Assembly: GCA_963281255.1 (NCBI GenBank)
Contig: OY725499.1
Coordinates: forward strand, 1,806,096 to 1,870,095
Source: Aphrocallistes beatrix
Taxonomy: Eukaryota > Porifera > Hexactinellida > Sceptrulophora > Aphrocallistidae
Length of the DNA stretch: 64,000 bases
Reading direction: 5' to 3'
Every line of letters starts with the position of its first letter. The stretch's first letter is position 1. Shown here one piece after another: positions 24,151 to 50,281 of this stretch. The notes beneath the pieces are model-generated. The model was not told the DNA's origin and searched no databases. It saw nothing but the letters and a program-made list of their open reading frames with translations. Position numbers and translations under genes: made by a program.

Positions 24151-24152
24151 CC

Positions 24153-24477
24153 TTACCCTTCTTTGAGTAAAAGGAGTGGGTCGCTCTGATACAGCAACCG
24201 GGTAAAAACATCTTTAATATTATCTTCAAAGCTGAACTTACGAGATAAACGTCCTCTATATCGACGGATCAACTTATTACTCGCTTCAAGACCTTCTAGT
24301 GATAATTGTTCCAGCACTAATCCATTATTGAAACAAGAAATTATGTCTGGTGCGTGTGCTAATACCTTGTGTAGCGTTTGTGCAATATTAGCCCAAGGAA
24401 ACGTTTTCAAAATTAGTAGATAGAGTTTCCGGCACACGAGTGCTAGTTCTTCCGTGTCTATACGACGTCCACAGTTA
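24153..24477 (-). pseudogene. RAG1/Transib-like transposase, C-terminal part
   Basis: Third segment of a split fossil (see 49205-50281 and 25048-25562). The minus-strand peptide carries TLHKVLAHAPDII, then LSLEGLEASNKLIRRYRGRL, then DNIKDVFTRLL and SDPLLLL. In RAG1 and Transib transposases the corresponding region holds an HK-LAH-P-II helix followed by an E-G-x-E-x-x-NK motif that includes the last acid of the catalytic triad; both are visible here. Frame is open from about 24465 to 24153, ending in a stop. The mariner derivative 24480-25045 separates it from the middle segment. Related unclassified Transib-like families share these motifs, so the exact family is uncertain. Confidence 0.7.
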
Positions 24478-24479
24478 TA

Positions 24480-25045
24480 CTAGGGCATTCAAAAATGGAT
24501 CGGAAACCAAGATGAGTAGTCAGAATGGAATGAATGGCCTCCGATGAAATCTCCATACTCTGCTCTAACTGCTCGATTGTTATACACTTATCTTCCCTGA
24601 CTTTGCTCTCGATTAGAGCAACATTCTCTGGGGTGCTGACGGACACCGGTCTCCCAGATCGAGGTAGATCTGACACGTCTGTATTTCCAGACTGAAATCG
24701 TGCAGCCCATCGCTCGACCGTTGATCTGGAAGGGCAGTCCATGCACAATACCTCCTGCAACTCTTTGTAGATGAGTACCGGCTGGATGCGGAGTTTTGTG
24801 CGAAACTCAATGTAAGCTCTCCGTTTCAGATTAAAATTGTCATCCTTGGAAGCCATAATTTTACCAGTATGTTGAAATGATGTGTGAATAAATTGATCAG
24901 AAATTTGTAATTTTCATTCAATCAAGCTAAGATTTTCAGTAAATCAAGCTAAGATATATGGTTGTCTTATAGATAAAAATTGATTTGTTTACTATTATAG
25001 TTTGTGAAATATACCATGACCCGCAAGACTTATTGAACGACCTAG
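24480..25045 (-). mobile_element. mariner deletion derivative
   Basis: Element of 566 bp with TA on both sides (24478-24479, 25046-25047). It encodes the N-terminal part of the same transposase as 2964-4000 (start at 24856, about 125 residues of paired helix-turn-helix). It then runs straight into the opposite terminal repeat (tagggcattcaaaaa) at 24495. So the catalytic part is deleted while both ends are kept, a typical non-autonomous derivative. It could still make a DNA-binding fragment, but that is only a possibility. Confidence 0.8.
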
Positions 25046-25047
25046 TA

Positions 25048-25562
25048 CACTCTCAAGATAGCTCCAAGGTAAGTATGAATCAAAAGGATAGCTTTTTGTA
25101 ATCTGTATGTATCGTTGAGTACCCAATATAAGAAATCCTTCTCACTGCTCATTCTTTGCACAAACAACGCCTGGCTACATTCAAGTAGTGGAGGTTCCCC
25201 CTTGTGAAGATGCAAAATCAATTAGAATATTTATTTTTTTTCTCAGTAATCCGCAGACATAATTTCTTGCACTTTTGACCTTCACTGAACTCGGTGACCA
25301 TGTGCAATTTCCACCATTTAGATGACCGATTAAGCCCATGAACCAATTAAAACAAATAAAAATAGATAAGCGTGCAAAGGTGTACTGGGAATTATATCGA
25401 TATCAGATAAAGGAACATGCGTGAGATCAAAACGTTGATCGCTAGTTAGAGAGAGAAATTCTTCCTCATTGACTTCCTGGAAGAGAACCTTTGGCATCGC
25501 CGATAAACCTGTTTATTGGAAAACCATCGCTGACTAAGTCTACATCGTGAATCTGTTTGAAT
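25048..25562 (-). pseudogene. RAG1/Transib-like transposase, middle part
   Basis: Reads on the minus strand from 25562 down: KQIHDVDLVSDGFPINRF, then after a frame change EVNEEEFLSLTSDQRFDLTH, PLSDIDIIPSTPLHAYL, FNWFMGLIGHL, TWSPSSVKVKSA, and later IDFASSQGGTSTT. This order fits the segment between the CxxC zinc pair and the HK-LAH motif in the RAG1/Transib superfamily. At least three frameshifts and several stops are present. The upstream piece lies across the 23.6-kb insertion at 49205-50281, and the reading frame runs on if the insertion and one target copy are removed. Confidence 0.65.
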
Positions 25563-25570
25563 GTACCAGT

Positions 25571-26375
25571 ACGAGTGTTATGTTGGCTTAGTATCCCACT
25601 GAGCACACTTGAAGTGTAAATTTGAGAACTTTCCCAATGTCCGATTTGGATAAATTCGGTGTTATTGGAAAGAGGAGGAAGCGACGTTTATGAAAATGTA
25701 ACATTCTATTTTTTCACCTTTTAGTTGATAAAATTTTATAGTCGAACCGAGCACAGCCTCAACCAATAATTTTAGTAGTTTATCTCAAAAATTATAATTC
25801 AAGAGCTTGCACTCATATTTCTGAATAACCGACGTTTATGCAGTTTAAATTTCATAAGCATTCAGTTAAGTTCGGACGTTTACCCCTCCTGATAGTATCA
25901 GAGTGAGCATGCTTTAAGCTCTGATTTTTCAATATATTCAAGATGTAATTCCGCTGGATGTATTATTATTGATAGAATAGACACGGACGTTTTAAGAGAC
26001 GTGATTTGAATCGTCTAAATTCATTAGTTTCTTAGGACAACCTCATCAAAGTTCACTAAAAATCCGAAATTTTGAATGCTGACTTCTGGCGACTTTTCCT
26101 ACATTTTTATCTAGCTTTCAGGGTTAATACTCCATCAAAGTATTCTTTATTACCTTATATCTTATTTTAAATAATAAAAACATAGGGCTGCTAATCGATT
26201 TTTTGAAATATTCCATTTTTAATCCATCCATATTCGAGCATCTTCCACAATAGGAAATTGTATTCCAGCAACTCTATACTGTATACACAGAAGTGATTGT
26301 ATAAAGATAAGACTATTAACTAAAGTGATACAATGACTGTCTTTCTTGCTTGAAGTTATAGTTCCAATAATTTTA
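25571..26375. repeat. left terminal inverted repeat of the MULE-like element
   Basis: Matches, inverted, 49024-49196, 48225-48563 and 37184-37516 taken in that order. The right arm is broken by two later insertions (48564-49023 and 37517-48220); the left arm is whole and serves as the empty-site reference for both. Confidence 0.8.
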
Positions 26376-26616
26376 CTTTACTTTTAATCTTATAATTAGA
26401 ATACTTGACAGGTAGTCCTGACTCCTGATTACAACATCGATGTTTTACACTGCAGAATTACGTAGGTATATAATGCACTCATTTCGAAACTTTGAGAAAT
26501 CGCTCATATTTACGAACATATCTTATTTATTATATTGACCTTTTACTAACATCTGAAATCGTGTTTATTTTTTTGATATTTTTTTTATCATTATCACATC
26601 ACCATTAACAAATTTA

Positions 26617-28919
26617 TGGAACATTCATACAAAGGTAAGTGAAAGATGGAATGTTTTGGAGACTTTAGATAATTTTTGATCTTAAAATGTTTTAGATCTC
26701 CCTAAAGATCTTTCCAAGCTTGTCAGTGTCTTGACTGAGAAATAATCTACTTTTGATGCACTGCAAAAGAAATTAGCTTTCCGTGGAGACTCATTATGGA
26801 GTGAACTGTCCAAATCAAATTATGGTCGGAACAGACAAGGTTTGAGACATAAACTTTATCTCAAGTGGAAAAATAACTCGCATAATATTCGGGGAATTTT
26901 GGAGCGCCACCTCTCCCCCACTAAGACTAATGATATCTCCAAAGAATTAAATGATGAAAGACTTGAGGTATGTATTCGTATGGATTTGCTTTCTAATGAA
27001 ATGAGAACTTCCCTAATATATATCTTCAATCGTCCTGAGGGATATTTGTGTTAGGATCCAAGAGAATGATTCGACAGCTAAGTTATTTTCTAGTGAATTA
27101 GATTGGGAGTCGATCGAGAACGATTTATACGATGATAATTTGTTAATTGTTTACTCCTCTGTCGCATCTGAATTGGATGTATGTATATACTGAACTAAAA
27201 GAGAAATTTCAGGGGTTTGATCTTGATTCTGAATATAGCATGGTAAAGTCATTATACAACGTTTTTATTAATTGTGAAGCTAAACTGTGGGTTGATGGTT
27301 GTATTTTTCATGGTTGTAATGAACTACTAGATATTATTCCAGGGTTTGTTCAATTTACTGATATAAATCTAGTTAATTGCTGTGAGGACTTCACATCTAA
27401 TATATTAAATAGATTTAGTGATAAATTGATAGAACGAAGTACATTGGTTGTAATGTGGATCGTATCTACATTACAGTTAAACAATGAGTTAAGGTGTAGA
27501 TCAATAGGTAATTTGTTTGATAAAAATCACGTTTTGTTGAGTAGTGACATGCTTTCAGAATTCGTTACTTGGATACAAAAATTAAGAAAAGAATTTCATA
27601 ATCATGGTGTTGAGGTTTTGAGATCTCTATATACCGAATGTTTAGTAAAATTAGAGAAAGATTTGTTTTTAGATGTTTCTTGTCCTCATAATGTGCCTAT
27701 CCCCTTATTGGGAAATGAAGAATTTGAAATAGATCTTATTGATTCCTGCAACAATTCAATATCTTTGCAGGAATCAATAAGATCTATTGACAGCCATGAC
27801 CAATTTACTGGTGAATTTTATCTTGATAATGGAGAATGGAACAGCATTTACTATACAGATGTCGAAGGTAGAGGTCGACTTAACAGAAACTGGACTAATT
27901 TAATTTCAAATAAATTTTCCATAGTAAATTCTTTTTGTGTACTTAAGTTTAAAAATTATTGGATTAAGAAAAATTCTAGTCGAAAAGTAAAATCTTCATT
28001 TTTTCAAGCCTCTGCAGTTTGTAAATTCTCTAATTGTTACAGTTTTTATTTCACAATTGAAGATGATGTTACATCACTAGATTATGTATAATAATCCAAT
28101 ATACCAGTGCATTATAGGTGTGAAGGTATTTTTTCTTCAGAACACTCAGATGGTATGACGAACTATGCTCGTCATTTATCTTGTAGTGAAAGACAAAAAA
28201 TGGGGGAGAATTTAATGCAAAATACTACTACGAATACTTTTCATTAGCAGGTTAATAGTGTAGATAATTTTTTAGAATTTAATAATGGTAATTTTAATAA
28301 TCTAAAATCACAAAATTGTTTACGTTAAATTAAGTCAAAAACTAGATTTTCAAACAATGATATGCTAGATATTATTGCCACCCAAAAATATTTCCGCTTA
28401 CTCCTACATGAAGGTTTGATCCCTGGATATATACAATATATCGCACAAGAACCATATGTCATTAATTTATATTCACAAAAACAGATAGATGTTTTAAAGC
28501 TTAATAAAAAACAAAAAAATGTTCTGAATTTGGATGCGACTGGATCTTTAATATTTAAACCGCCATTTTGTTCGAATATAATATTTTACTATGCGCTAAC
28601 ATTGCAGCACCCCGAATACCGCACTAGTCCTGTACCTATAGCTGAAATGATCAGTAGCAATCATGGTGCAGCTGAAATTACTCATTTTTTAAATAAATGG
28701 GTATTAACTAGTAAGTTAATAATGAATAGAGAAATAAAGATCGTTCAAATCGAATTGGATTATAGTTGGGCCATGATGCACAGTGCATGCATTTCATTTA
28801 ACAAAATAAATGTTTTAAGCTACCTTGATAAGTGTTGGGAAGTAGTAAATAATGTCAAACCTGAATTTAGCTTTAGTACAGTCCTTCATCTTTGTTCTGT
28901 ACATATTATGCATCGTATA
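26617..28919 (+). pseudogene. MULE-like DDE transposase, N-terminal and central part
   Basis: A short first exon from ATG 26617 appears to splice (GTAAGT at 26636) to an acceptor after TTTTAG at 26694; the join restores an Asp codon in frame. The body has a long helical N-terminal domain (26842-28091), then GIFSSEHSDGMTNYARHL and LSCSER-type residues (28110-28190), then the core. VLNLDATGSLIF (28524 on) gives the first acid and VQIELDYSWAMMHS (28745 on) the second. In-frame stops occur near 27052, 28089, 28246 and 28326. The frame is cut at 28919 by the Tc1 and resumes at 30259 without a shift. The family pattern (NLDATGS, then a D-SW motif, then an SNAxxEN motif) is one I know from uncharacterised animal transposases. 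The assignment to the MULE superfamily is inference. Confidence 0.6.
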
Positions 28920-30258
28920 CAGGTGGTTAAGAAATTGATGTCCCTTTTTTGAAATCAAATAAGATTATTAATTAACCAAATTAATCGTGTTTTAGCTTCA
29001 AATTCTCTTTCTACATACTGTAAATAATAGAATTTATATTCATTCTAAAAAGTGTTGATACAAAAAAATCATTTTGTTCAAATATCATTAGTTCTCATAG
29101 ACTAGAAATAATCATGGTCAAAGAAGTAACTCTAGCCGCCCGTACACGTGCAGTTTGCATGATAGAAGCTGGAATTTTTATTAAAAAAGTTGCCAAAGAT
29201 ATAGGGGTATCTGTCCGTACCATTCGGCGTTGGTTGCTGAGGTTCAAGGCTGGTGAATCACTACAGAACAGGGGGGGGCCGTGGAAGAAAAACGTCCGTC
29301 ACTATGGTGCCCAAAGTGGTCATTGCCAAGACAATCGGTAAAAAAATGAAATCCACAAGACTTATCTCCAGGAATCTTAAATCTAAAGGGTTTTCTATCT
29401 CCCACGTGACGGTACACACGTATTTACGCAAAAATCTGAAAGTTCGATCATTCAAACCTCAGGTTCAACCCAAATTGACGGAAAAACAGAGGACAGCTCG
29501 CCTAAAATTCTGTAATGAGAGAAAGAATTGAACAATTGAAAACTGGCAGAGGGTTTTATTCTCGGATGAGTCCGCCTTCGAGTTATTTCACACTCCAAAT
29601 AAGCAAAACGACCGAGTTTGGGCAAAATTAAGTGTCAATGTCCCCCCGACTGAAAAGGTCAAATTTCCTGGAAAGGTCATGGTGTGGGGTGTGATGTCAT
29701 ATCAAGCACTCTCACACCTCCACATAATCCCCAAAGGGCAAACTATGACATCAGAATACTGTGTAGAAACAATATTGAAACAATCTCTAACATCCACTAT
29801 GCTTCGAACGAGAGATTCAGGGACTATTCTGGAGAAAAAAATGTTGCCAGAAAGGTCTAAAGCGATATTTCAACAAGATGGGGCCCCAGCACATACCTCT
29901 AAGAAAAGCCAGGAATGGCTAAAAACAATATACCGGGATTTTGGACTAAGGATATATGGCCTGCGAACTCGCCAGACTAAAATTCTATTGAAAACGTCTG
30001 GCCAATTTTGCAAACCAAGCTAGATTCAATGGAGCGTGCAACAAACCTAAAAATGTTAGAAAATCAACTAATTGAAGCCTGGAAGGAATTCTCACCAGTG
30101 ACCCTAGAGAAACTCATAGCGGGGATGCCTTCTCGCATTAAAAAATGATTTTAATTAAATGGAGATTACATAGGAAAGTAAATAGTACACCTTTCTAGTT
30201 TGCATTATTGTAGTAATATGTATGGTACAAAATGGGACATCAATTTCTTAACATCCTG
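28920..30258 (+). mobile_element. Tc1-like element
   Basis: Ends caggtggttaagaaattgat and atcaatttcttaacatcctg, TA at 28918-28919 and 30259-30260; 1339 bp. Inserted inside the transposase gene of the MULE-like element; removing it with one TA restores the reading frame exactly. Confidence 0.9.
29114..30146 (+). pseudogene. Tc1-like transposase, frameshifted
   Basis: N-terminal helix-turn-helix from MVKEVTLAARTRAVCMIEAG with a homeodomain-like second half (VAKDIGVSVRTIRRW) and the linker GGP in place of GRP. A frameshift follows near 29275 in a run of nine G's. Then come VTVHTYLRKNL, a TAG/TGA-broken join near 29530, FSDESAFELF (first Asp, 29566 on) and FQQDGAPAHTS (second Asp, 29870 on). A further shift falls near 29960, where the motif before the final Glu (NSIENVWP in a shifted frame) lies. 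Length without breaks would be near 340 residues, normal for Tc1. Breaks at a homopolymer make this a fairly young copy. Confidence 0.8.
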
Positions 30259-31270
30259 TAAGTTATAATATAGATAAAAAATTTAAAATAGAAAATAAAA
30301 TTAAAAAAGTAATATTACATGCTATTGGTACAATGGTTAAGAGTAATAATATGGAGGAGATAAAACTTGTTTTTGAGTCTCTTTGTCATTTATTATACAG
30401 CGAAGTGAATTCTTCTTATGTAGGAGATGGTCTAGTTAATTCAGAGAGGTTAATAAAGGGAGAGATAAAAATAGACAGTTTCCATCCTGAAACACTTGAT
30501 GAGGAATCGATAACGAGGGAAATTTGTGAAACATACAAGAAAAAATAGCCTTTTGGAAGAGATTTTGATAATATTTTTAATACATGCCTAAATATGATTA
30601 AGTTAGCACCTCAAAATGAAAAAAAGATTACTAAAAAGATTAAAAATGCATTTTATTATCCAGAAATTCTTGACTATTTAATGACTTATTATTTTCCTTT
30701 GCTTCCCTTTTGGACAGGAATCATTTTAAGCAAGATTAATGATAGCACAACTGATAGTAACGCCATTATTGAAAATTGTTTTAGAATTGTAAAATATTCC
30801 ATTTTCAAATCTGAAACTAATATTAAAGCTGGAGACTTTATTCGTACGATATTTACTCATATTGATGATAGATTAGCAACTTTTAAATTTGTATTTCAGC
30901 CCTTGGCAGATAAGGTGTTCAAGTCTAAAAAGAGGCAGTATGAAGTAATTAACGAGGAGGAATGTCAGGAAGAATGGGGGAAAAGAAAAAAACTTAGGCG
31001 GAGTTACATTAAATCAGTTCCTAGTAAAAAAATAGAAAAAGTATTCGATAGTTTTAAGGTTGGTTTATTTTCTGTTCCAAATAAAAAGAAGAGGGTATCA
31101 TCTATAGTGAATTCAGGGGCTAAGAAAGCTAAAATTGATGAATCTCTTGAGACACAAGTAGTTCTTCCTCAAGCTGATATTGAAATACTCACTGACTTAG
31201 ACGTTTTAGCAGTCGTTAATTTAGACTTCTTATTACCACCATTCAAACCTTTGTCAAGTCTTGGTAAAAC
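30259..31270 (+). pseudogene. MULE-like DDE transposase, C-terminal part
   Basis: Continues the frame of 26617-28919. Contains ESLCHLLYSEVNSSY, one in-frame TAG at 30546, then FPLLPFWTGIIL and TTDSNAIIENCFRIVKYSIF. The SNAxxEN(W/C)FR motif holds the likely third acid. It is followed by KAGDFIRTIF and a basic, low-complexity tail (KKRVSS, GAKKAKID) that could be a nuclear signal. The end is cut by the MITE at 31270-31727. Apart from the TAG the frame is open for about 340 codons, so decay is light. Confidence 0.6.
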
Positions 31271-31727
31271 TAATGAAAGTATTTGCACACTTCATTATCT
31301 CACGTTGATTTAATACTAAATGGGTCTATTTATGAAGATTAAAACTCCGAAACGGCAAGTGGTACAACTAATCGGGTTTCAGATTCGAATTATTATTGTA
31401 GGATATTTCTAATCAATTATTAATTCCCAATGTTTTCAAATTATCAATCACTGCCACCTTGTGCCACATTTGTCCCTTTTTATCACTATACAATTATGGT
31501 GATGTACTACCTCTTGTGTCACAGGTTGATAATTTTACTCATTGGGTTGAGCAATTTATTAGAAATATCCTACAATAACTAATTCGAATGCGAAGATTTC
31601 GAATCTGAAACCCGATTAGTTGTATCACTTACCGTTTCGGAGTTTTAATCTTCATAAATAGACCCATTTTAGTGTTAAATCAACGTGAGATAATGAAGTG
31701 TGCAAATACTTTTGTCTGGGTACTGTA
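31270..31727. repeat. Tc1-type MITE, left tip worn
   Basis: The right end caaatacttttgtctgggta then ctg matches the family at 58880-59358. The left tip is mutated, but the arm from agtatttgcacacttcatta onward is present. Interior palindromic. Inserted in the 3' part of the MULE-like gene. Confidence 0.65.
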
Positions 31728-31809
31728 GAAGTATGCAAGGAATTTGGGCTTCACTTTGTGAAATCAATAACTACGTACTACATATGAAAACAGTAACAAC
31801 AAAATATTT

Positions 31810-31958
31810 AATTTGAATGAATTAGTTCCTATATCCACTTATCAAGTACCGAAGGATGGGAATTGTCTATTTTCATCTCTCTCTTATTTAATTACTGGTA
31901 CTATTGATTATTATCATAAATACGTATTTGAACCCAACCCTGCCATACGTGAACAATG
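31810..31958 (+). pseudogene. OTU cysteine protease, N-terminal fragment
   Basis: Encodes VPKDGNCLFSSLSYLITG and then YYHKYVF, ending at a TGA. D-G-N-C-L-F followed by a Ser/Leu helix is the hallmark of the OTU (ovarian tumour) protease fold; the Cys codon at 31864-31866 would be the nucleophile. The catalytic His part is not clearly readable in 31960-33050. It lies downstream of the MULE-like transposase within the same terminal repeats, so it probably belongs to that element as a second domain or gene. A role in removing ubiquitin is the family function; here it is a fragment. Confidence 0.65.
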
Positions 31959-31959
31959 A

Positions 31960-33052
31960 CTCTAGCATGTCTATACAGATACTGGTGTATGGAAATTTCT
32001 AGACCGTCTCTATATCAGTGTTCACTTGTAGACATCCAACACCCCTATTCATTACGATATTTATACCAGTATAGGTTGCTCAAGGTAGGCTTCCCTAAGT
32101 GCAGATTTATAATGGGATTTGTCTGGTTTGGGGCTCAAAATTGGAAAAGGCGTACTTCTGATAGCCTTCCACAGTTATGGTCGGAGTAAGATTAGAGGGA
32201 GTTTAATAATTTTTCTAAGCCCCATAAACCCCATAAACTTTGCTTAGTAATGGCGAAAATATATATACTCAAATCATTTGTTGCAGAAGAGTAAACATTA
32301 ACATTTATTACGTGTAAAGGATTCTGGCTGACTCAAATCCTAGTTCACAAAGTACATATAACTATATTAAATTGTCGTGGATTCTAACATAACAACGCCC
32401 ACTACAAACAATATTAGAAAATAAAATTTTCTATTGAAAGCAATTCCAATGAATACAACCTCAGTACCATCAGAAGTTTCATATCAGGAGTTGGTCTAAT
32501 TTGAAAGATATTTTTGTGCTTCTTTTCAATATTTTTTGTTCTGATTTATATTATATATTTTACATTTTTGGATAATATATTTACCTATGTTCTTTTTATA
32601 ATATATTTTTATTGTTTTATTATGTATTTTGTATGTATTATTTGTTCTATTGTGTATGTTATAGCCAGGAGTCTCACTATCCTTAGGTGCTACTAGTAAA
32701 AAAATGATAAAAACTGGTTCTAGTAGCTCGTTACATTGCCTTCGAATTAACCCTCCAGTGGGAAGTGAGCTCGTACCTGGCCAAATTAATGTGTATTCTT
32801 TGTGGATTACAAACATTAAAATTATATACTTTATTCTATTCTCCTTTGGAATGTTTCCCTAACTGTGATCCGAGACCCAAAAAGCGAAGTATTATGGTAA
32901 TTGGGATCATTGTCCTTCATAAAAGCTAGAATGGCTTAAAGAGATTGGGGAACATTATTATTTTCTACAAATGATAACATTAAATCCTATTTAAGCTTGA
33001 GACCTTCATAATTATAAAGATATCGCGGTCGAATGCAATAATATATATTTAG
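31960..33052. other. decayed tail of the MULE-like element
   Basis: May contain the rest of the OTU region (a GVWKFLDRLY stretch near 31985), but stops are frequent. Very AT-rich at 32520-32680. No clear feature. Confidence 0.3.
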
Positions 33053-33054
33053 TA

Positions 33055-34378: not shown

Positions 34379-34730
34379 TATATTAGGTATACTTTAAAAG
34401 ATTCCGATTTCTTAATTAAGGATTCAAAATAGGTATATTTAACCTTGATCAAATTTGGTTAAAGGTACTCATGTTTTGGATGAATTAGGAATACCATTAC
34501 ATACTTACATGTAAACATGAGCCATAATAAAAGCGTTTAATTTCGTGGGACATGGCGAGACGCATTAGGAAAATATTATACAAATAATTTTAAAAAAAGC
34601 GGGACACTTGTGGAAATTAGAAGACTAGGTCCAGCCAAAAAGGGACAATTGGCAAGTATGCCATTAGAGCATTACAGTAAGTAATTTTCGATGGCATGTA
34701 TGAATAAATAATACAACTTAATCTCTAAAG

Positions 34731-37020: not shown

Positions 37021-37080
37021 CTCTAAAGCTTTAAGTCAAGAATTGTATTAAATACTCTCTATGGATTTATTCAATCTTAT

Positions 37081-39960: not shown

Positions 39961-40529
39961 AAATTGAGGATGAAGAATGTGAGGATTGGGCTTTTGAGTG
40001 TACTGATTGCTGTATTGACGGAGATATGCTACGTTGTATTTTAATGCCTTCAAATAACTGTTTACTCAACAACAAGGCCAAGAATATTACTTCTACCACC
40101 TCTTGTCCCAAAGATACTCAAAGGAAGATACTTAAACTTACCTCTAATTAATATATGTATATATATATACACTTATATATTTATGTAGTATTCCTTGTCC
40201 GTCAACTAAATTATGCCAGCAGTCAGTAACATCATTATTGTGGGGTAGAGGATGTATAATTACACGATATTAAATATATCAAAATGATATTGTGTTAAAT
40301 TTCATTGTATTAAACTCGACTTTATCTTATCCCTGGTCTAAAGTAGCGAAATGGCCTGTATGTAGTAGGCTATGATCATATATAGTTTATAGACCCAAAA
40401 CGAGCATATTTCTTCTGACATTATATAGTATTTCGATTTATGCTTACTAATTGGAACTATGACGTCATCTGAATTTATTATTTTTCTAAATGATAGAATT
40501 TGTACTCTATTCCACCTCAAATTTTCTAA
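39961..40529. other. sequence between Ty3 fragment and Tc1 gene
   Basis: Holds a short frame (39957-40151), AT microsatellite near 40154-40185, and the inverted copy of the left Tc1 arm at 40318-40380. Confidence 0.4.
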
Positions 40530-41513
40530 ATGGCACAGCACTCCAAGAGACATCAAATACAAACCTTATTGGAAGCAGAAAAGTGTTCGATAGCAGAAAT
40601 CGCCAATCAGGTGGGCGTTGCGCGCTATACTGTCTATCGTTTAAAAAACCGCATCGAACAAAATGAGCCTCTTGTTCACAAGAAGGGGGGTGGTAGACCG
40701 GCGAACAAATGTGATAAGATCAAATACAGCTGCGCAAAATACATCCAGCATGATGCTCAAAAACCAGTGAGAGAGATCGCATCAGAAATTCATAGTAAAA
40801 GTGGGATTAGTGTGTCTAAAAGTACCGTCCACAGGTGTCTGAAAGGGATGGGGTATTCGAAACCTTATTTAACAAAGGTACCCATGTTAAGCGAGAAAAA
40901 CCGCTTGAATCGGATTGAATGGGCGAAGAGAAACAAAGGGAGGAGATGGTTTCGTGCTGTATTTAGTGACGAAGCATCATTTTGGCTCAGAAGTGGTCGA
41001 GTTCGCATGTGGACAAAAGGAAGCCAGAAAAAGGTCCTCCTCACGGTAAAGCACTCTCCAAAGATCCACATCTGGGCTGCGTTTTCAGCTATGGGTACAT
41101 TCCCATTGTGCATTTTTACTCAGAATCTGGATGCTAAATTTTTCGTACACATTCTAAAATGGCACTCGATCGATCAAGCAAGAGCTTTTCATGGAGACAG
41201 TTGGATTTTGATCCAAGATAACGACCCAAAACACACATCACGATTGGCGAAGTCCTGGATGGAAGAAAACATACCAAAAAATCGGTTCGATTGGCCCAGC
41301 CAGAGCCCTGATTTGAACCCCATAGAAAACATATTCGGTTGGATGAAGCACAAGCTTCAACGGATTGAAATCTCTTCCATTAACGATCTGAAGGCACATC
41401 TGGAAGAGCTCTGGGAATCTATTACCCCAGAATTTTTAGAGCCATACTATAGATCAATGAAGCGAAGATGCGAGATCGTGATAGAAAATGAGGGCTATTC
41501 TATCAAATATTGA
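40530..41513 (+). CDS. Tc1-like transposase, intact frame
   Basis: 327 codons without a break, the normal length for Tc1 transposases, which cut the element out and insert it at TA. Residues about 1-55 form the first helix-turn-helix (IAEIANQVGVARYTVYRLK). Next is the linker GGGRPANK, then a second helix-turn-helix (VSKSTVHRCLKGMGY). The DDE core shows FSDEASFWL (first Asp, about residue 149), ILIQDNDPKHTSR (second Asp, about 235) and SPDLNPIENIFGWMK (Glu, about 270), the DD34E spacing of Tc1. Start chosen at the first Met before the helix-turn-helix; no competing upstream Met. The only intact transposase in the window; whether its own ends are functional is unclear. Confidence 0.9.
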   Translation: MAQHSKRHQIQTLLEAEKCSIAEIANQVGVARYTVYRLKNRIEQNEPLVHKKGGGRPANKCDKIKYSCAKYIQHDAQKPVREIASEIHSKSGISVSKSTVHRCLKGMGYSKPYLTKVPMLSEKNRLNRIEWAKRNKGRRWFRAVFSDEASFWLRSGRVRMWTKGSQKKVLLTVKHSPKIHIWAAFSAMGTFPLCIFTQNLDAKFFVHILKWHSIDQARAFHGDSWILIQDNDPKHTSRLAKSWMEENIPKNRFDWPSQSPDLNPIENIFGWMKHKLQRIEISSINDLKAHLEELWESITPEFLEPYYRSMKRRCEIVIENEGYSIKY

Positions 41514-41544
41514 TCACATATGTTTAATATATCTTTCCACCAAA

Positions 41545-42290
41545 TATGATAACTCATAGCATTCTATATACTAAGGCAATGGCACTCACCAAAAAATTGG
41601 TACCATGGATTAGTTAAATACTTCAATCCTAAAACCGCTAATTAAATAACTGTTATTATCAACTATATAATTATCTCATATTGTGAGTTCATGGTTGTTT
41701 AAATATTCATTTTGAAAATATTATGTAACCACAATATTTATATTTACTTCACATACAACACTAGTGTATTGCAATAATGTATTATTTTGCTGCATATTAT
41801 TTCTATTACTCATTTATAATACCTCACTTGACAACACTAATTGCATAAATCATTATTTGGACGAGATGTCGTCTCGCGCCTGACTCGACTTCCAATTACA
41901 GAGGAGTGGAACACTTCATGAAGTTTTTCAATTTCCCAAAGATGGTGCTCTTCGTGAAAATGGTATCGAGCCATTCCAAGACGTGTGAATACTACCAGAA
42001 CAACAAGATCCCGGGTGAGTGTTTTCTTAAGTAATGTAGTTAATTATTCTAGAATCATGCATATACATACTCAAGTTGGGTAGAAACAATTGACTGAATT
42101 TAAAAGACTAAGAAAAAGTGTTGCCTTCCCCAAATTTAGTAAATGCAATCCTCGTTACTACAAAAACGTGGGCATAAGTACCTTTTTTAAAATTCGGATA
42201 AGTGCAATTTATCTAAACGTGCTCCAAATTAATATCAGAATTATCTAAACGTGCTCCAAATTAACATCGGGACATTTCGCCTTTCCAACC
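41545..42290. other. right flank of Tc1 gene, possible exon near 41919-42014
   Basis: 41545-41640 is the inverted copy of 43490-43590. About 41919-42014 encodes MKFFNFPKMVLFVKMVSSH and continues to KIPG, followed by a good donor (GGGTGAGTG), so it could be an exon of an unknown gene or captured host DNA. No partner exon was found. 42125-42290 has repeated atctaaacgtgctccaaatt phrases that look like the start of a pogo-type MITE cut by the gap. Confidence 0.3.
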
Positions 42291-42293
42291 TGA

Positions 42294-42493
42294 NNNNNNN
42301 NNNNNNNNNNNNNNNNNNNNNNNNNNNNNNNNNNNNNNNNNNNNNNNNNNNNNNNNNNNNNNNNNNNNNNNNNNNNNNNNNNNNNNNNNNNNNNNNNNNN
42401 NNNNNNNNNNNNNNNNNNNNNNNNNNNNNNNNNNNNNNNNNNNNNNNNNNNNNNNNNNNNNNNNNNNNNNNNNNNNNNNNNNNNNNNNNNNNN
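42294..42493. other. assembly gap (200 N)
   Basis: Run of 200 N. The flanks cgcctttccaacctg and caggttggaatggcg are near complements, so the gap probably hides the loop or array of a foldback MITE. A length of exactly 200 suggests a placeholder size. Confidence 0.9.
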
Positions 42494-42700
42494 CAAGCCT
42501 GCTGGTTGTCAGGTTGGAATGGCGAAATGTAATTTTGGCCCTTAAGATTTCCATTAGTCAACTGCCGGACTGTTAGCTTATATCATGGATAAGAACAGCA
42601 TAGACCAGAACTAAACTGTTGAGTTCTTGAAATTCGTTAATGATGTTTAGAAAATGTTCAATGTGAATTGGGTAGGGAAGAATAGTCGTTTAACGACGAT

Positions 42701-42846
42701 CATAGGCGTAAGGATTTTGTTTTTTTCACGGTTAGCTGGGGTGGCGAGATTTGTAAACATATCAAACTAATGTGACATGCCACCCCAAGTCAACATTTAG
42801 GTTTGGGTGGCACGCTACCCCTGCCACTCCTGGAGTTACGCCTATG
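42701..42846. repeat. hAT-type MITE
   Basis: 146 bp, ends cataggcgtaa and ttacgcctatg, flanked by ACGACGAT (42693-42700) and ACAACGAT (42847-42854), an 8-bp duplication with one change. Inner gggtggc and gccaccc stretches add to the fold. Confidence 0.7.
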
Positions 42847-43194
42847 ACAACGATGTATCTGCATCCTCAGCAGAAATTTAAGAGATTTATTCTGGCCCTT
42901 CCCGTACACGTACTAATATTATTCATTTGGCATGTGATACTATGGAACTAGAACCTTGTACACTTCTAATAAAGTTAAGACCTCTATATAATGCACTAGT
43001 ATTGAAACAAGAGAATAGTAAACTGGCTAAATTCAAGAACTAATTTAATATATTCTTTGTTTATTTAGTCGACTTCACAGACTGTAGAAGTCCGGAATGT
43101 GTGACTATATCCTATTGTAAGTCTGGAGTGCGATTGTTCCTTAGTACCTTGTTGAAGTAAATCGTTCCCTTATGATGCCTCAAGTCTCAGGTCG

Positions 43195-43315
43195 GTCAAG
43201 TCAAGTCAAATCTGTCCCTCAAGCTAAGTCAAGTATGTCCTTCAAGCTAAGTCAAGTCTCTCTCAAGCTTAGTCAAGTCTCTCTCAAGCTTAGTCAAGTC
43301 TGTCCCTCAAGTCTC
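43195..43315 (+). repeat. tandem repeat of gtcaagt/ctcaagctta
   Basis: About six imperfect units of the aagctaagtcaagtc and ctctcaagcttagtcaagt types. Confidence 0.75.
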
Positions 43316-43843
43316 AATATTGTGATTAACTATTCTTTTGATATTTTGTATGTATTAAGTATTAAATAATTCGACTATGTGCATTAAAAACCAAATAATA
43401 TATCTCATTCCAATTGTTCTGATATAATAGTTAGTTTGTCAGGGTGGGTGAATGCCTAAATTGATGGAAAATTGAAATATCTACAATATTAAAATTATTG
43501 GTTTTGAAGTATTTAACCAATCCATGGTACTAATTTTTGGGTGAGTGCCATTGCCTTAGTATATAGAATGCTATGGATAACTATATCTCATTTAGATAAC
43601 CGTTTAAGACAATTTAATTACTTTTGTCTAGTGTCACAATAATTATGGGACAAACTGTATTCCTTTATAAATAGACCCACTTTAATACTATTTGTATGGA
43701 GGTTTCTGTGGTGGTCGAATACTTTTGTCCGGGTACTGTATGTGGCAGCTAATTATTGATGCGGGCAGTGGGGCTGAAACAAGTTTTCAGCGGCCTTATA
43801 AGAATGTATTTGATGTTATGTGCTTTTTGCCTTAGAATTATAA

Positions 43844-46800
43844 ATGGATCGTTTGGAGTACGTCCGAAGATTTGAATTCTTAAAACATGGAAAATATCCA
43901 GATGGATTTTCCCGTCAACAGAAGTGGAACTTCAAGAGGAAGTTGACCAGATTTTTCGTATCTGAGTCGGACATCAAGGTGAGTACGATCTAATAATTCT
44001 GGTATTTACGGTTTATTCAAAGATTTTTTAAAAGCGAATAGAAAATATTCTAAAATATAGCTGCTTGACCGGCTACTGACCTTTATATTTATTAATTTTA
44101 TTTAATAAATTAATTACCATATTAAGATATTGTCAGTTAAACGCTCAATTATTTTAATTTCTGAAAAAACTTGACCTGTTCCAAGTATAAACATTTCCGA
44201 ACGAATTTTCGTCTTGGAGTATTTTATTAAAACATATTTGTATATCGTTTTTAATTGTATTAATTAATTACAGAGAGAGATAATAGATGAACAGGAGAGA
44301 GACTTCCAGGTTCCATCCCGTGATGATATCCCGAGTATATATTGGAAAAATATCATGACCATCTTTTACATCCTGGAATGAATTCCACTGCCCAATCAAT
44401 TCAGCAGCGCTATTACTGGATGGGGATGTATACAGAGATTGTGAACTACGTGAGTTTGGCATATTATTAATGACGAGTCTTTCACTTTCATTACTAATTA
44501 ATTAATTAAACAAAATTAATCAACCATTGTATACTAGGTAAAAACTTGATGCTTGCCAGCAAAATAAAGCTTTGCCACCTCAGCCACAGAAAAAGTTACA
44601 GCCGATCCTCCTCCAGAGAGGCCGTGGAAGCACATAGGGATTGATCTCGGATGTGATCTCTCTCCAAGTCCAGATGGTTACAAACACATTCTCGTTACCG
44701 TGTGCTACTTGAGCAAGTATGTAGTGGTGCGACCTCTCAAGACCAAAACCGCCGATGAAGTAACCGAAAATCTGAAGGATATATCTCGATGTTGGTGTTC
44801 CAGATATTATCCAACACGATCAAGGCAAAGAGTTCACTAGCAATGTAAGCTATGATTTTGTAATCATATATGTAGAAGATAGGATAGGATAGTCATAATG
44901 TTTTACCCCCTTTTAGATTTTTCAGCAATTTCATCAGAAGTTAGAAGTTGACAACCGCAGTACTCGTGCCTATCACCCGATGGCAAATGGGTTGGTCGAG
45001 GCGATAATAAGATTTTAAAATCGTATGTGGTAGTATTTCATCCATTTATAAGTTAATTAATTATCATTATTTAATGATGCATTAAATTCTAGCAAGTTGA
45101 ACAGGATGACCTTTCAGACTGGGCAACATTGGTCTACTCCACTCAAGCCTGCAGTCTTATGCATGAACTCTACTTTTAAGAAGTCTCACTCATCTACTCC
45201 ATTTCAGGTTATGTGGGGACGAGAATCTAAATACGAAAATTTAGTCTCTGATATATCTAAGATCAAAATAGGTCCTGATGAAGACTATGAACTAGAAGAG
45301 GCAATTTTATCCGAGACCTTACCAGCACAGGAGGAGTGCGAAATGCTAGATACCTTTTCCCCTCCAGAAGACCACCTTGAATCAATTCACCTCCTGAATG
45401 AATCAAGGAACAATACCCAGAAACGTTGAAATGTCTTGATTATATCAGAGCAGCTAAAGCAGAAGAGGCAATATGATAAGAAAGTCAACGAAAAGAGGTA
45501 TGCTACTCTTTTATTATTTACACTAACATAGTTCATATTGATTATCATTTTTAATACGTGTGTAGGTGCAAACTTAAGTAAGGGGACAAAATCCTATTCA
45601 CCAACATGCCTAAATTAAAACAGATGCCCAACACTAAAAGTCAGGGTAAATTTTTGGGACCTTTTACAGCGTCTAGAATTACTGACAGTCATGCTATCAT
45701 TTCAAAAGAAGAATTAAATTCCAAAAGAGATAAGAAAGTACCCATCCACATCACACAACTCTATTACGAGCGTCAAGAAATTGATAGTAGACTCTCTATT
45801 ACGAAATCTACGGAAAAGAGGAAAGTTGATCTGACATCTGATAGCCGAGAGACCAAAAAAATGAAGCTTTCACAAGTATGTTCAATATTTCACTCAATGC
45901 ATCATGATATGATTTGCTTATTTGCCCTTCTTCTCTAGACCCCACACATTGAAATTTGGGTTTACAAGTGAAGCAATTCATAATCATCTCTCGAACCTCA
46001 AGGTGATTTGAATAGTTATTTGATTGTAAAGTAATCATCTCATGATTTGTTTCCATGACTTGTTTCATAAGAATGCTGACGCCATACTACTATTTTTTCA
46101 TCGAAATTCTTGTACATGTTTATTTTAACATTATCACTAGACAAAATAATTGTGCAACTGTATGTTGTGAGCTTTTCATGAGAATCATTTTTCTCAATCA
46201 CTAGATTATTCTCAAAGAAAACTTGAGGAGAGGTACTTTCATGACACCCTTACATGAAGATCTACATAGGAAACTGAATAGATTCCACCATTACGTCCCC
46301 AATATCCTCATTTTTAAGTTTCTTAAGGACTCGAACGCGGATCAGTTGATACTTTTTGATCATTTAGTAATTGCAAATTCTAAAACTTATGATTTAAAAT
46401 AACATATTGACTTTAGAAGAAAGATATCAGGGAAACTGTTCTGAGCTGGACTTCAGATTTATATCCAGAATTCGGAGATATTATGGCTGCTAAATACGCT
46501 GAGAAAGTACTTTATGGAGTTGTGAGTTATATTTAATAAATTGTGTCCAGATAAAATGCATAAAAATAGTCTAATGTATATCAAACTATTCTATGAATTC
46601 ATATTTTATAATTCGAATGACTACGTTTTAAAATTTATATTATAATATTTATACTTTAGGCTATCCAGTATTTGAGTTCCATTCTTTGGGATTCATTCCC
46701 TGACAACTCGAAATCCAGAAGCCCGGGGATTCCTAGCTCCAGTCCTAAAATCCAAGTTCTTTCAGAAGAGTGGCTAAGAGAGAAATGCGATTTATATGGA

Positions 46801-47350
46801 CTCAAATTCGACTCTCTAATTCGGCAACCCGGTAACCTCGCAGGCCAACCACATAGCTGTTATCAACCATGGGAGATCGAGAGCATAGTAGGTGATGGCA
46901 ATTGTTTGTACAGATGCCTAGCGAAAGTCTTTACTGGCAAAGAAGATAACTATCCTCAAATCCGTAAAATTATATCTCATTTTATCGCCTCTGAAGGAAC
47001 AACGAAACTTGCCTGGTACTTCAAACAAAAAACAAATAACCCCATGTGACTACCTTCTAGATGAGAATCCCTGTCATCTTAATGGAATTTGGGGAAGCGA
47101 TGTGGAAATAATGACGGCCTCTTGTATCTTCAATGTGGATATATATGTAGCGACCAATAACAATCAAGGAAGCTCGCTTATTCGAGTTGTTAGATGGAAC
47201 CTGCATAGAGCCACTGACAATCCTGAAGCAGCCATCTACATCCAAAATTTTAATCTTCATTATGAACTTCATTATGAAGTCATCTCAATGATAAACTGCA
47301 CCACTCCTTCTTATGGAAACATACCCGGAGATGTTCAGACTCTTGACTAA
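43844..47350 (+). pseudogene. Ginger-like transposase: integrase plus OTU protease, multi-exon
   Basis: Exon 1 (43844-43978) starts MDRLEYVRRFEFLKHGKYP and ends at AAG/GTGAGT. Exon 2 (about 44275-44449) has the zinc-binding HHCC start, YHDHLLHPGMNSTAQS then QQRYYWMGMY. Exon 3 (about 44538-44846) has DACQQNKA (the Cys pair), then the integrase core HIGIDLGCDLSPSPDGYKH (first Asp) and IIQHDQGKEFTSN (second Asp) before GTAAGC. Exon 4 (44917-45016) has RAYHPMANGLVEA (Glu). Then TPFQVMWGRESK (45097-45429) and a chromatin-type SH3-like tail, GKFLGPFTASRIT (45606-45880). After an exon at about 46417-46518, the last exon (46660-47350) carries an OTU protease: VGDGNCLYRCLAKVF (Cys 46903-46905), WGSDVEIMTAS, and NLHYELHYEV (His). 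Several single-base frameshifts (for example near 44325, 44620, 44790, 45005, 47010) disable it. Exon edges are my reading of splice signals. Confidence 0.7.
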
Positions 47351-47930
47351 ATAGCTTCTTCACACTTTACTGTACGGACTCGGTGTTTACAAACAAACAA
47401 TACTATACGGACTACGTGTTTACATATGGACCTAGTTGGCAACTAGCCAGCCTGATGAGTCTTAGATAGACGAAAGGCCCGTATTTTTTCCGATGATAAT
47501 AGCATTAATTTAACAAATAACACAACACATATCTTCAAGCTAAGAGGAGAACATTCTGATTTGTAATTAATGGATGCAAAAAGTATTTCGATGTCTCAAA
47601 ATTATAACGCAGTAGACACTTTACAAGTTAACTTAACGACAGCACGATTATCTGATTTATTGCAATATATGAGTGTTATGAAATCATGTACTGCCGATTG
47701 CTAAACTACTAAATAACCAACAATATAATTCCTTTGTAGTAAATATCTTTATATTTTATTTATTTGGTAAAATAAACATTTTTATATGTATTTTATTTAT
47801 TTATTATTAAACATGTTCACGTTCTTCCAATTATCTTGTAAAATACACTCTAGAGGAGGGTTTGATTTAGATATTAGGATAGCCTGTATTAAAATAATTG
47901 ACACTAAATATAATAGAATGTCTCAAAATT
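47351..47930. other. 3' untranslated and subterminal part of the Ginger-like element
   Basis: No gene. Two phrases (actgtacggactcggtgttt, then actatacggactacgtgttt) repeat at 47369-47425. Confidence 0.45.
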
Positions 47931-47933
47931 CAT

Positions 47934-48150
47934 AATAAATTTAATAGAATGTCTCAAAATTCTACGCTCGCTATCTGCATTATAAATTTAATAGAAATGT
48001 CTCAAAATTCTACGCTCGCTATTTGCATAATAAATTTAATAGAATGTCTCAAAATTCTACGCTCGCTATCTGCATTATAAATTTAATAGAAATATCTCAA
48101 AATTCAACGCTCGCTATTTGCATAACAAATTTAATAGAAATGTCTCAAAA
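47934..48150. repeat. subterminal repeats of the Ginger-like element
   Basis: Five units of about 48-50 bases (aaatttaatagaatgtctca, then aaattctacgctcgctat) leading into the right terminus. The core gtctcaaaattctacgc is also in both termini, so these look like multiplied transposase binding sites. Confidence 0.75.
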
Positions 48151-48224
48151 TTCTACGCAATGCATAGTTCTATAACACTAGTGTCTCAGAATTCTATGCG
48201 TCTCAAAATTCCACGCAACAGTCC

Positions 48225-49196
48225 TAAGAAACTAATGAATTTAGACGATTCAAATCACGTCTCATAAAATGTCCGTGTCTATTCTATCAAATAATAATAC
48301 ATCCAGCGGAATTACATCTTGAATAGATTGAAAAATCTAAGCTTAAAGCATGCTCACTCTGATAACTATCAGGAGGGGTAAACGTCCGAACTTAACTGAA
48401 TGCCAACTTTGCCAACCTATAACTCACAAGAAATTTGGAATTTTCTTATGAAATTTAAACTGCATAAACGTTGGTTATTCAGAAATATGAGTGCAAGCTC
48501 TTGAATTATAATTTTGAGAGGAACTACTAAAATTATTGGTTGAGGCTGGGCTCGGTTCGACAACAGTACACCCTCGCTAATCGGAACCTCGCTAGTTCGT
48601 ACCCTCGCTAATCCGAACAGCGAGGGTTCGGATTAGCGAGGGTTCCGATTAGTGAGGGTTCCGATTAGTGAGGGTTCCGATTAGTGAGGGTTCCGATTAG
48701 CGAGGTTCCGAACAGCGAGGGTTTCGGATTAGCAAGGGTTCGGATTAGCGAGGTTCCGAATAGCGAGGGTTCCGATTAACCTAACTATTCTCCACGAACT
48801 AATGGAACTGGCAGCGAAAAAGAGGATAAGCAATATAAAGCAAATGAACTTGAATGACTTTTTCTAGCCTTAATGCATTACATCATGTATAGTAATATGT
48901 ATGAAACAACATAACCGTATACGTATTTCAATATTCTGGGTTATAAAAATAGGTTCTTCAACTAATCGGAAAGATTTTTTCTCTCCTTGGTACAGGGCTG
49001 TTCGGATTAGCGAGGGGGTACTGTATAAAATTTTATCAACTAAAAGGTAAAAAAAAAGAATGTTAATACATTTTCATAAACGTCGGTTCCTCCTCTTTCC
49101 AATAACACCGAATTTATCCAAATCGGACATTGGGAAAGTTCTCAAATTTACACTTCAAGTGTGCTCAGTCGAATACTAAGCCAACTTAACACTCGT
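48225..49196. repeat. right terminal inverted repeat of the MULE-like element
   Basis: Outer part of the right arm, pairing with 25571-26037 of the left arm; interrupted by the pogo-like MITE 48564-49023. The inner part of the arm lies at 37184-37516, on the far side of the Ginger-like element. Confidence 0.8.
48564..49023. repeat. pogo/Tigger-like MITE with amplified end motif
   Basis: Ends cagtacaccctcgctaatcg and cgaacaga-type inverted right end (ggattagcgagggggtactg). The right TA is kept at 49024-49025; the left copy is now AA (48562-48563). The left arm of the host element has a single TA at this spot (complement of 25740-25746). 48590-48780 repeats the end motif (gttccgattagcgaggg) about ten times. 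Confidence 0.8.
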
Positions 49197-49204
49197 GTAG
49201 CAGT

Positions 49205-50281
49205 GCAGAACTGGCAGGATGCACCTCCAGCACCGCTATGAATGTGGACCATTTTACCATCTAACTGCGAACGTAAATATCTACGGGAGCATGATGCCCA
49301 TTATTTAGATCCAACCCATTTTTTTATTAACATCTATTTCCGTGTTGATCATCATTTTCATTAAAAAACTGGCATTTGCTGATTTTCTGTGCTAGTAGTG
49401 CAATTGGCAGGATCGAAAAGGGAGAAATAGGTACAGGACTTTTCCAGAGAGTGTTGCTATGAATATCTGAAATCGTTATCACTTTGAAACCAAACAGGAG
49501 GAAATTATTAGTTGAGATGTCCGGATGAGAGGTTAATTGATAATATACACGATGGGATCCTGACCCATCTAGTCCGTCAGAGATACGAACTTGTAGTGGC
49601 TGTTTAGAATTATCAATCGAGATATTCGCTAAAATTCTATTAACCGTATGAGTGAGTAATGCTGTATGGTATGCCTATGCCAACTGAATAGCCTTCTCTC
49701 TCCACAAAATGAATATCATCGACTAAACTAATTTGGTTATGATGAAGAGCTACGCTATTGTAACCCGGAAGAGTAATGGATTCTGTCAATAAAACACGCC
49801 ACAAATCAAGATATTTCAACTAGCCTATTTCTAGAGAGTACAACAAAAAAGCTGATGCGTCCAGAGACAGTTTGCAATTGAGGTTCCCGAATGTTCCTGT
49901 ATTGATGATCTCTTTCATCGCTTTTGCAGTGCAATTGTCGTGCTGTTCCAGTGAATAAAATTTTAGTAGGTAGATAGCTATTGTTTTAGGAGTAGAATCC
50001 TCATGTTGAGCAACAGCTTCAACGTGCGACCCAAGCTCAGCTAGTCGGTTACGAATGGACCTATTCTGCAACTTGCGAATGTGCTTTACATGTTTTCGAC
50101 TGAAATATTCCTTGAATTCAACTGTCGGTTGAGAAGTTTGCAATATGTCGATGGAGAAGTCGCAGTCTGAGGATTGAGGGAACTCACTATGTAATGGATT
50201 TATGGAAGGTGTGCAAAAATGCAATTGGTACCAGCTCGTTAAGTCAGAACTTCTTACATAGACTAGTCTCTCCTTCTTCAT
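49205..50281 (-). pseudogene. RAG1/Transib-like transposase, N-terminal and first catalytic part
   Basis: Minus strand from Met 50281. An open stretch of 153 codons includes KHIRKLQNRSIRNRLAEL and LSLDASAFLLYSLEIG, then a TAG, YLDLWRVLL and LPGYNSVAL: the pre-catalytic region of the superfamily. After a shift come VRISDGLDGSGSHRVYYQL, NNFLLFGFKVITI, LWKSPVPIS and ILPIALLAQK. In RAG1 a D-G-x-G-D motif followed by an F-F/F-x-V strand and a P-x-P-N-S loop marks the first catalytic Asp, and the same order is seen here. Next are a QLDGKMVHIHSGAGG stretch and CQFCTAT, the CxxC of the zinc-binding region (CTLCDAT in RAG1). The gene is cut right there by the element 25571-49196 and continues at 25562. 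At least four frameshifts or stops. No RAG2-like gene is visible. Confidence 0.7.

What the first reader, a model, noticed from the sequence alone, without database searches (positions are those of the whole stretch)
24153..50281. RAG1/Transib-like transposase fossil cut in two by a 23.6-kb transposon
Seen: minus-strand pieces at 50281-49205, 25562-25048 and 24477-24153 carry, in order, D-G-L-D-G, a CxxC-TAT zinc pair, HKVLAHAPDII and EGLEASNK. Known: RAG1 and Transib share these landmarks (D-G-x-G-D, CTLCDAT, HK-LAH-PEII, EGNESGNK). The break falls just after CQFCTAT and the frame resumes with FKQIHD once the insert and one 8-bp target copy are removed. Inference: one ancestral gene, with close kin to RAG1 rather than a generic DDE protein. 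Whether it is Transib, a RAG1-like (RAGL) element or an unclassified sister family is open.
Basis: partly seen in the sequence, partly recalled or inferred. Interest (0 to 1): 0.8.

Follow-up and report, generated by a model that had tools for sequence, protein, structure and literature searches.

The report
Broken Transib transposase, twice interrupted
This is a dead copy of what is most likely a Transib jumping gene, a distant cousin of the antibody-making enzyme RAG1, cut in two places by younger jumping genes; such relics are an expected find in invertebrate genomes, though this one keeps a RAG1-like length in one region that is worth checking.

Summary
Three minus-strand pieces (50335-49197, 25562-25046, 24477-24058) belong to one degraded transposase gene. 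It is interrupted by a 23,626-bp transposon (25571-49196; target copies ACTGCTAC/ACTGGTAC) and by a deleted mariner between TA copies. The frame continues across both joints. A frameshift-tolerant alignment of the joined DNA runs colinear with HzTransib: score 160, 101 of 362 identical, best of 12 shuffles 53. By sequence the nearest solved protein is HzTransib (E 2.2e-12), then lancelet RAG1L (7.9e-5), then RAG1 (0.0041). The DDE triad and zinc ligands are present. Identity is 26% to HzTransib, 21% to RAG1L and RAG1. No RAG2 match, RAGL zinc tail, or terminal repeats above chance were found. Verdict: most likely a Transib fossil, a new member of a known kind, not a RAGL element. Loose end: the zinc-binding region has RAG1-like overall length (111 residues; RAG1L 112, RAG1 114, HzTransib 81), but no sequence similarity above chance there. 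Only one Transib reference was available, and the window's own genome could not be searched.

The parts
49197..50335 (-). Transib-like transposase, piece A: N-terminal core with LPGY, first catalytic D (GLDG, codon 49569-49567), WxxPxPxS, second catalytic D (DGKM, codon 49261-49259), CQFC zinc pair
   Evidence: frameshifts near 49645 and 49263, stops in EIG* and RC**KNG
49197..49204 (-). 8-bp target copy ACTGCTAC, still part of the gene
25571..49196 (.). 23,626-bp inserted transposon; terminal inverted repeats in seven blocks, 25571-26037 against 48222-49196, each 93.5-100% identical; 472 of 490 bases identical over all blocks of the alignment; right arm interrupted at 48562-49023 and 48404-48445
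25563..25570 (-). second 8-bp target copy ACTGGTAC (1 mismatch)
25046..25562 (-). piece B: zinc-binding region with two candidate positions for the active-site His (DLTH and PLHAY), LID...GGT and ARR stretches; at least two frameshifts and several stops
24480..25045 (-). internally deleted mariner, TA copies at 25046-25047 and 24478-24479; its 151-aa open frame 24458-24913 reads out past its end
24058..24477 (-). piece C: HKVLAH, EGLEASNK with catalytic E (codon 24287-24285), SDPLL, then a frameshift and a tail LACYLIEDISDQEKLVNSLILPEDD with TGA at 24060-24058

Best explanation
A dead, single-gene Transib transposase copy. When intact it would have cut its own ends and pasted itself elsewhere with a RAG1-type DDE RNase H domain (inferred from the family; HzTransib is the solved relative). 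It decayed by frameshifts and stops, and took two later insertions: a deleted mariner at a TA, and a 23.6-kb long-repeat transposon with an 8-bp target duplication, so that its two ends now lie about 26 kb apart. Shown: the gene, its decay and the two insertions. Inferred: the mechanism, and that it was a Transib rather than a near relative.
For: phmmer against PDB sequences: HzTransib 6pqn E 2.2e-12, first of 20 rows; next BbRAG1L 7.9e-5, then 15 RAG1 rows from 0.0041 to 0.19; 3 rows are unrelated proteins. Frameshift-tolerant alignment of joined DNA: HzTransib 160, 101 of 362 identical, colinear across both joints, 12 shuffles 30-53; BbRAG1L 102 (31 of 76) and mouse RAG1 98 (33 of 74), C-terminal block only. 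Catalytic D, D, E and the CxxC and HxxxxH columns are shared by all four sequences. Shared with HzTransib and not with BbRAG1L/RAG1: first-D to second-D distance 104 and 101 against 112 and 110; LID-to-GNxAR distance 17 and 17 against 10 and 10; SDPL. Joints with target copies and restored frame.
Against: No Transib termini: no CAC(A/T)(A/G)TG heptamer in the upstream flank searched, two downstream ones without a partner; the best CAC...GTG pair with an exact 5-bp duplication had 8 of 16 identities, reached in 57 of 200 shuffles. Overall length of the zinc-binding region is RAG-like, 111 against 112, 114 and 81 in HzTransib, and GNxAR-HK is 80 against 82, 85 and 69. 26.2% identity to HzTransib equals the average that PMC9435367 gives between RAG1L and Transib (26.22%) and is below its average within Transib (34.28%), though decay of the gene lowers it. 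One Transib reference only.
Confidence: 0.78

Rival explanations
1. A RAG-proximal Transib lineage (the 'Subgroup I' of PMC9435367), keeping the RAG2-contact region of the zinc-binding domain that other Transibs have lost. This is a sub-case of Transib, not its opposite.
For: CxxC to LID/LNL is 111 residues (BbRAG1L 112, mouse RAG1 114, HzTransib 81) and GNxAR to HK is 80 (82, 85, 69). EGLEASNK shares 6 of 8 letters with BbRAG1L EGNEAGNK, 5 of 8 with mouse EGNESGNK and 5 of 8 with HzTransib EASEARNK, so this is a slight lean at most.
Against: In the CxxC-LID interval, shuffled versions align as well as the real order in 372 of 500 (mouse), 284 of 500 (lancelet) and 222 of 500 (HzTransib) trials; an earlier cut of the interval gave 381, 78 and 294 of 500. 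In GNxAR-HK the figures are 168, 21 and 18 of 500, so HzTransib does no worse than lancelet. The type-1 tail motif is absent in all three frames. Lengths rest on hand-chosen frames in a decayed gene, and which His is the active-site one is ambiguous (CxxC-His 54 or 69; HzTransib 34, BbRAG1L 64, mouse 68).
Confidence: 0.17
2. Remnant of a RAGL transposon (RAG1L of a RAG1L-RAG2L pair), of which PMC9435367 reports fragments in ecdysozoans (section 1 part 1 read).
For: Same superfamily; RAG1L and RAG1 hits in the C-terminal block; RAG-like zinc-region length.
Against: 21.4% identity to BbRAG1L and 20.7% to mouse RAG1, which share 37.9% with each other; HzTransib itself has 24.6% and 23.5% to them, so the fossil is no closer to RAG than HzTransib is. 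No Cx2Cx3GHx4C tail. No RAG2 match better than E 1.1 in the window, with a recalled mouse RAG2.
Confidence: 0.06
3. A Chapaev-type transposase, which PMC4411706 counts as a distant clade of the same superfamily.
For: Not excluded directly: no Chapaev sequence was held.
Against: Colinear 26-28% identity with HzTransib over the catalytic region, while the paper (section 6 read) calls Chapaev transposases only distantly related to the other Transibs.
Confidence: 0.03
4. Chance resemblance in non-coding DNA or an unrelated DDE gene.
For: Many frameshifts and stops; only one of four pieces has a Pfam match.
Against: E 2.2e-12, score 160 against at most 53 in 12 shuffles, frame continuity at two independent joints.
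Confidence: 0.01

Closest known systems
HzTransib (Helicoverpa zea Transib transposase, PDB 6pqn)
   Same: Colinear from TVNRI to SDPL, 96 of 366 to 101 of 362 identical; same catalytic D, D, E and zinc ligands; LID-to-GNxAR distance 17; SDPL. The chain is named 'DNA-mediated transposase'; that it is HzTransib is recalled
   Different: The fossil has 30 more residues between CxxC and LID and 11 more between GNxAR and HK; EGLEASNK in place of EASEARNK; termini not found
BbRAG1L of the lancelet ProtoRAG transposon (PDB 6b40)
   Same: Catalytic and zinc residues; similar overall length of the zinc-binding region
   Different: 77 of 359 identical, 21.4%; no CTT zinc motif; no RAG2 match
Vertebrate RAG1
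   Same: Pfam PF12940 match of the C-terminal piece, E 5.5e-6; N-terminal core alignable, 1 of 500 shuffles as good
   Different: 79 of 381 identical to mouse RAG1, 20.7%; here a broken gene among transposons

Membership tests
Transib | DDE transposase core colinear with a known Transib | tested here: met
   (one Transib reference)
Transib | Less than 22% identity to RAG1/RAG1L (PMC7204232) | tested here: inconclusive
   20.7% and 21.4%, but HzTransib itself scores 23.5% and 24.6% on the same alignment, so the published limit does not carry over to it
Transib | Terminal inverted repeats starting CAC | tested here: inconclusive
   none above chance; ends may be lost or decayed
Transib | 5-bp target site duplication | tested here: inconclusive
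Transib | Transposase is the only gene, no RAG2 partner | tested here: inconclusive
   no RAG2 match in the window (recalled mouse RAG2, tblastn); intact copies not seen
RAGL / ProtoRAG | Cx2Cx3GHx4C motif in the C-terminal tail | tested here: not met
   no CxxC in any of three frames, 24180-23800
RAGL / ProtoRAG | Linked kelch-PHD RAG2L gene in convergent orientation | tested here: inconclusive
   best tblastn E 1.1, scattered; the 165-aa plus-strand ORF 20714-21211 has no Pfam match; a wider Pfam scan did not run; a decayed RAG2L could be missed
RAGL / TransibSU | More than 30% identity to RAG1 core (PMC4411706) | tested here: not met
   20.7% to mouse RAG1
Transib Subgroup I (PMC9435367) | alpha11-alpha12 region retained in the zinc-binding domain | tested here: inconclusive
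   length RAG-like, sequence not above chance; position of these helices not checked in a structure
Transib Subgroup I (PMC9435367) | Type-1 C-terminal tail | tested here: not met
   taking the type-1 tail to be the Cx2Cx3GHx4C motif of RAG1L, and if the tail is not lost
Chapaev | Groups with Chapaev transposases in a tree | not testable with these tools
   no Chapaev sequence held

The most novel reading that the evidence does not exclude
The fossil belongs to a RAG-proximal Transib branch that keeps the RAG2-contact region of the zinc-binding domain but has a Transib-type catalytic core and no RAGL zinc tail: a combination that fits neither Transib subgroup as described, and so a possible intermediate between Transib and RAG1.
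Probability: 0.12. Interest if true: 0.55.

Novelty: new member of a known kind. Interest (0 to 1): 0.24.

Why it matters
As a Transib relic it adds one host copy to a widely spread superfamily and little more. It would matter if intact relatives showed a Transib-type core with a RAG-like zinc-binding domain, because the order of events between Transib and RAGL (Transib gaining RAG2, or RAGL losing it) is openly discussed in PMC7204232 and PMC9435367 (passages read).

Tried and rejected
Element ends: local alignment of the flanks gave a 17-bp inverted match, score 14.5; CAC...GTG pairs with a 5-bp duplication were no better than shuffles. Relatives: viral contigs with the C-terminal piece and alignments A1 and A2, genome contigs with A1 and A2, HzTransib by tblastn in plasmids and phages: none found. 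These collections hold viral, prokaryotic and plasmid DNA, and the pattern searches need conserved stretches, so this says nothing about animals. Bacterial Transibs reported by PMC9435367 were thus not recovered. RAG2: recalled mouse RAG2 by tblastn, best E 1.1. No tree was built: with HzTransib, BbRAG1L and RAG1 as the only references, the unrooted quartet is the same under both hypotheses. The superfamily of the 23.6-kb insert is not settled: no Pfam match for three whole ORFs at E up to 0.1 nor for two pieces at E up to 10; a single-sequence AlphaFold model had mean pLDDT 43.8 and was not searched. Rfam at gathering scores and ARAGORN found nothing. Host species not determined.
Full report
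What is there. On the minus strand, three pieces of coding sequence lie in order at 50335-49197, 25562-25046 and 24477-24058. The pieces are decayed: in piece A the frame shifts near 49645 and 49263 and stops occur at EIG* and RC**KNG; in piece B the frame shifts near 25476 and again later, with several stops; in piece C it shifts after SDPLLLLKEG, before a tail that ends at a TGA at 24060-24058.

The two interruptions. The large insert is 25571-49196, 23,626 bp. It is flanked by ACTGCTAC (49197-49204) and ACTGGTAC (25563-25570), one mismatch in 8, and its ends are inverted repeats, 472 of 490 aligned bases identical over all blocks. Removing it and one target copy restores CQFCTATFKQIHD. The second interruption, 24480-25045, is an internally deleted mariner between TA copies at 25046-25047 and 24478-24479; removing it with one TA restores LGAILRVYNCGRRIDTEEL. 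Two independent joints with target copies and a continued frame make one ancestral gene the sensible reading.

What it is. phmmer of the joined translation against PDB sequences gives 20 rows at E up to 10: HzTransib first (E 2.2e-12, from a C-terminal stretch with 7.9e-8 and a middle stretch with only 0.23 of its own), then lancelet RAG1L (7.9e-5), then 15 RAG1 rows (0.0041 to 0.19); 3 rows are unrelated proteins (0.039, 1.2, 1.3). In Pfam, one of four single pieces matches RAG1 PF12940 (E 5.5e-6, 25.2 bits, cut-off 25); the other three match nothing at E up to 10, and the joined protein scores 22.3 bits, under the cut-off. tblastn of the three references against the window hits only piece C: HzTransib 8.2e-11, BbRAG1L 2.6e-7, mouse RAG1 1.9e-5. 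Because the joined protein involves choices by hand, I aligned the raw joined DNA to each reference with a frameshift-tolerant local aligner. HzTransib gives 160 (101 of 362 identical) over all 377 residues held, crossing both joints; 12 shuffled versions give 30 to 53. BbRAG1L gives 102 (31 of 76) and mouse RAG1 98 (33 of 74), C-terminal block only; their shuffles reach at most 42 and 44. On the four-sequence alignment the fossil shares 96 of 366 letters with HzTransib (26.2%), 77 of 359 with BbRAG1L (21.4%) and 79 of 381 with mouse RAG1 (20.7%); HzTransib shares 24.6% and 23.5% with these two, and they share 37.9%.

Catalytic residues. The alignment puts GLDG with the first catalytic Asp, DGKM with the second, EGLEASNK with the Glu, and CQFC and HKVLAH with the zinc ligands. 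The numbering D600, D708, E962 is recalled; counting from D600 along the mouse sequence gives these columns. H795 is named as an active-site residue in PMC7204232 (passages read). For that His the alignment program chose DLTH, while I had first taken PLHAY, 15 residues on; I cannot decide between them. So the relic still spells the DDE triad, although the frame is broken many times.

Transib or RAGL. PMC7204232 (abstract and passages read) says Transibs share less than 22% identity with RAG1/RAG1L and that essentially all invertebrate RAG1L tails carry Cx2Cx3GHx4C. PMC4411706 (abstract, section 3 part 1, sections 5 and 6, and passages) gives more than 30% identity of TransibSU to RAG1 and says known Transibs encode one protein only. 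Here identity to RAG1/RAG1L is 21%. The 22% limit cannot be applied strictly, since HzTransib itself exceeds it on my alignment; what can be said is that the fossil is no nearer to RAG than HzTransib is. No CxxC occurs in the tail in any frame, and no RAG2 match was found. Shared with HzTransib and not with BbRAG1L or mouse RAG1 are the shorter first-D to second-D distance (104 and 101 against 112 and 110), the 17-residue LID-to-GNxAR distance (10 in the others) and SDPL. Transib is thus the best label. Its termini and target duplication could not be found, and 26.2% to HzTransib is no higher than the average between RAG1L and Transib in PMC9435367 (26.22%; within Transib 34.28%), though decay lowers the figure.

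The loose end. From CxxC to LID/LNL the fossil has 111 residues in my reading, against 112 in BbRAG1L, 114 in mouse RAG1 and 81 in HzTransib; GNxAR to HK is 80 against 82, 85 and 69. PMC9435367 (section 1 part 1 and passages read) reports that a RAG2-contact region of the zinc-binding domain is kept in Transib Subgroup I and lost in Subgroup II, which includes most previously known Transibs; that HzTransib is one of these is my inference. The fossil's lengths would fit Subgroup I; the lack of a type-1 tail would not. Sequence does not decide: in CxxC-LID, shuffled versions do as well in 372 (mouse), 284 (lancelet) and 222 (HzTransib) of 500 trials, and with the interval cut at PLHAY in 381, 78 and 294 of 500; in GNxAR-HK in 168, 21 and 18 of 500. 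In several of these alignments the free end gaps let the pieces slide apart, so the test is weak. The N-terminal core aligns to the RAG1 N-terminal core with 1 of 500 shuffles as good, or 2 of 500 with looser gaps; the paper says both Transib subgroups have such a domain, so this does not discriminate.

Changes on checking. I lowered the Subgroup I rival from 0.20 to 0.17 and the novel case from 0.13 to 0.12, because the position of the active-site His is ambiguous, and raised RAGL from 0.05 to 0.06.

What could not be done. The window's own genome was never reachable (14 identical requests), and the collections that answered hold viral, prokaryotic, plasmid and phage DNA, where no relative was found. 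The host is therefore unnamed; the crowd of mariner, Tc1, hAT and gypsy-like pieces suggests an invertebrate animal (inference).

Verdict. A real fossil, well read by the first stage, and ordinary in kind: most likely a dead Transib transposase cut by younger transposons. Interest is low to moderate, kept above the floor by the mixed spacing pattern.

Noticed in passing
window 25571-49196: The 23.6-kb insert has about 470-bp terminal repeats, an 8-bp target copy, split ORFs at 27147-28952 and 30252-31313 of which the parts scanned had no Pfam match, and an OTU-like protease split over 46660-47350 (Pfam OTU E 0.095 and 0.014, below cut-off). The motif order recalls a Mutator-like transposase (recall, untested); PMC6446971 (passages read) lists the Mutator family Phantom in crustaceans and arthropods with 8-10 bp target copies and 18-613 bp terminal repeats. 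Superfamily open.
   Followed up: partly
window 29532-30023, 33154-33657, 36581-36880, 38846-39967, 40530-41513, 44568-44840: Nested inside the insert: a DDE_3-like piece (E 0.032, below cut-off), a mariner piece on the minus strand (Transposase_1 E 1.3e-18), a hAT end (Dimer_Tnp_hAT E 9.4e-5), a gypsy-like protease-RT stretch (RVT_1 E 3.1e-13), an uninterrupted 327-aa Tc1-type frame (DDE_3 E 1.6e-17) and an integrase-like piece (rve E 0.043, below cut-off).
   Followed up: partly
window 2907-3482 and 24458-24913: A mariner open frame at 2907-3482 begins much like the deleted mariner inside the Transib gene, so this mariner family has at least two copies in the window.
   Followed up: no
window 48570-48770: Block of repeated CCTCGCTAATCCG-like units and inverted copies interrupting the right terminal repeat of the insert.
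   Followed up: no
window 42294-42493: 200-base run of N (assembly gap) inside the insert, so the insert's length is only as assembled.
   Followed up: no
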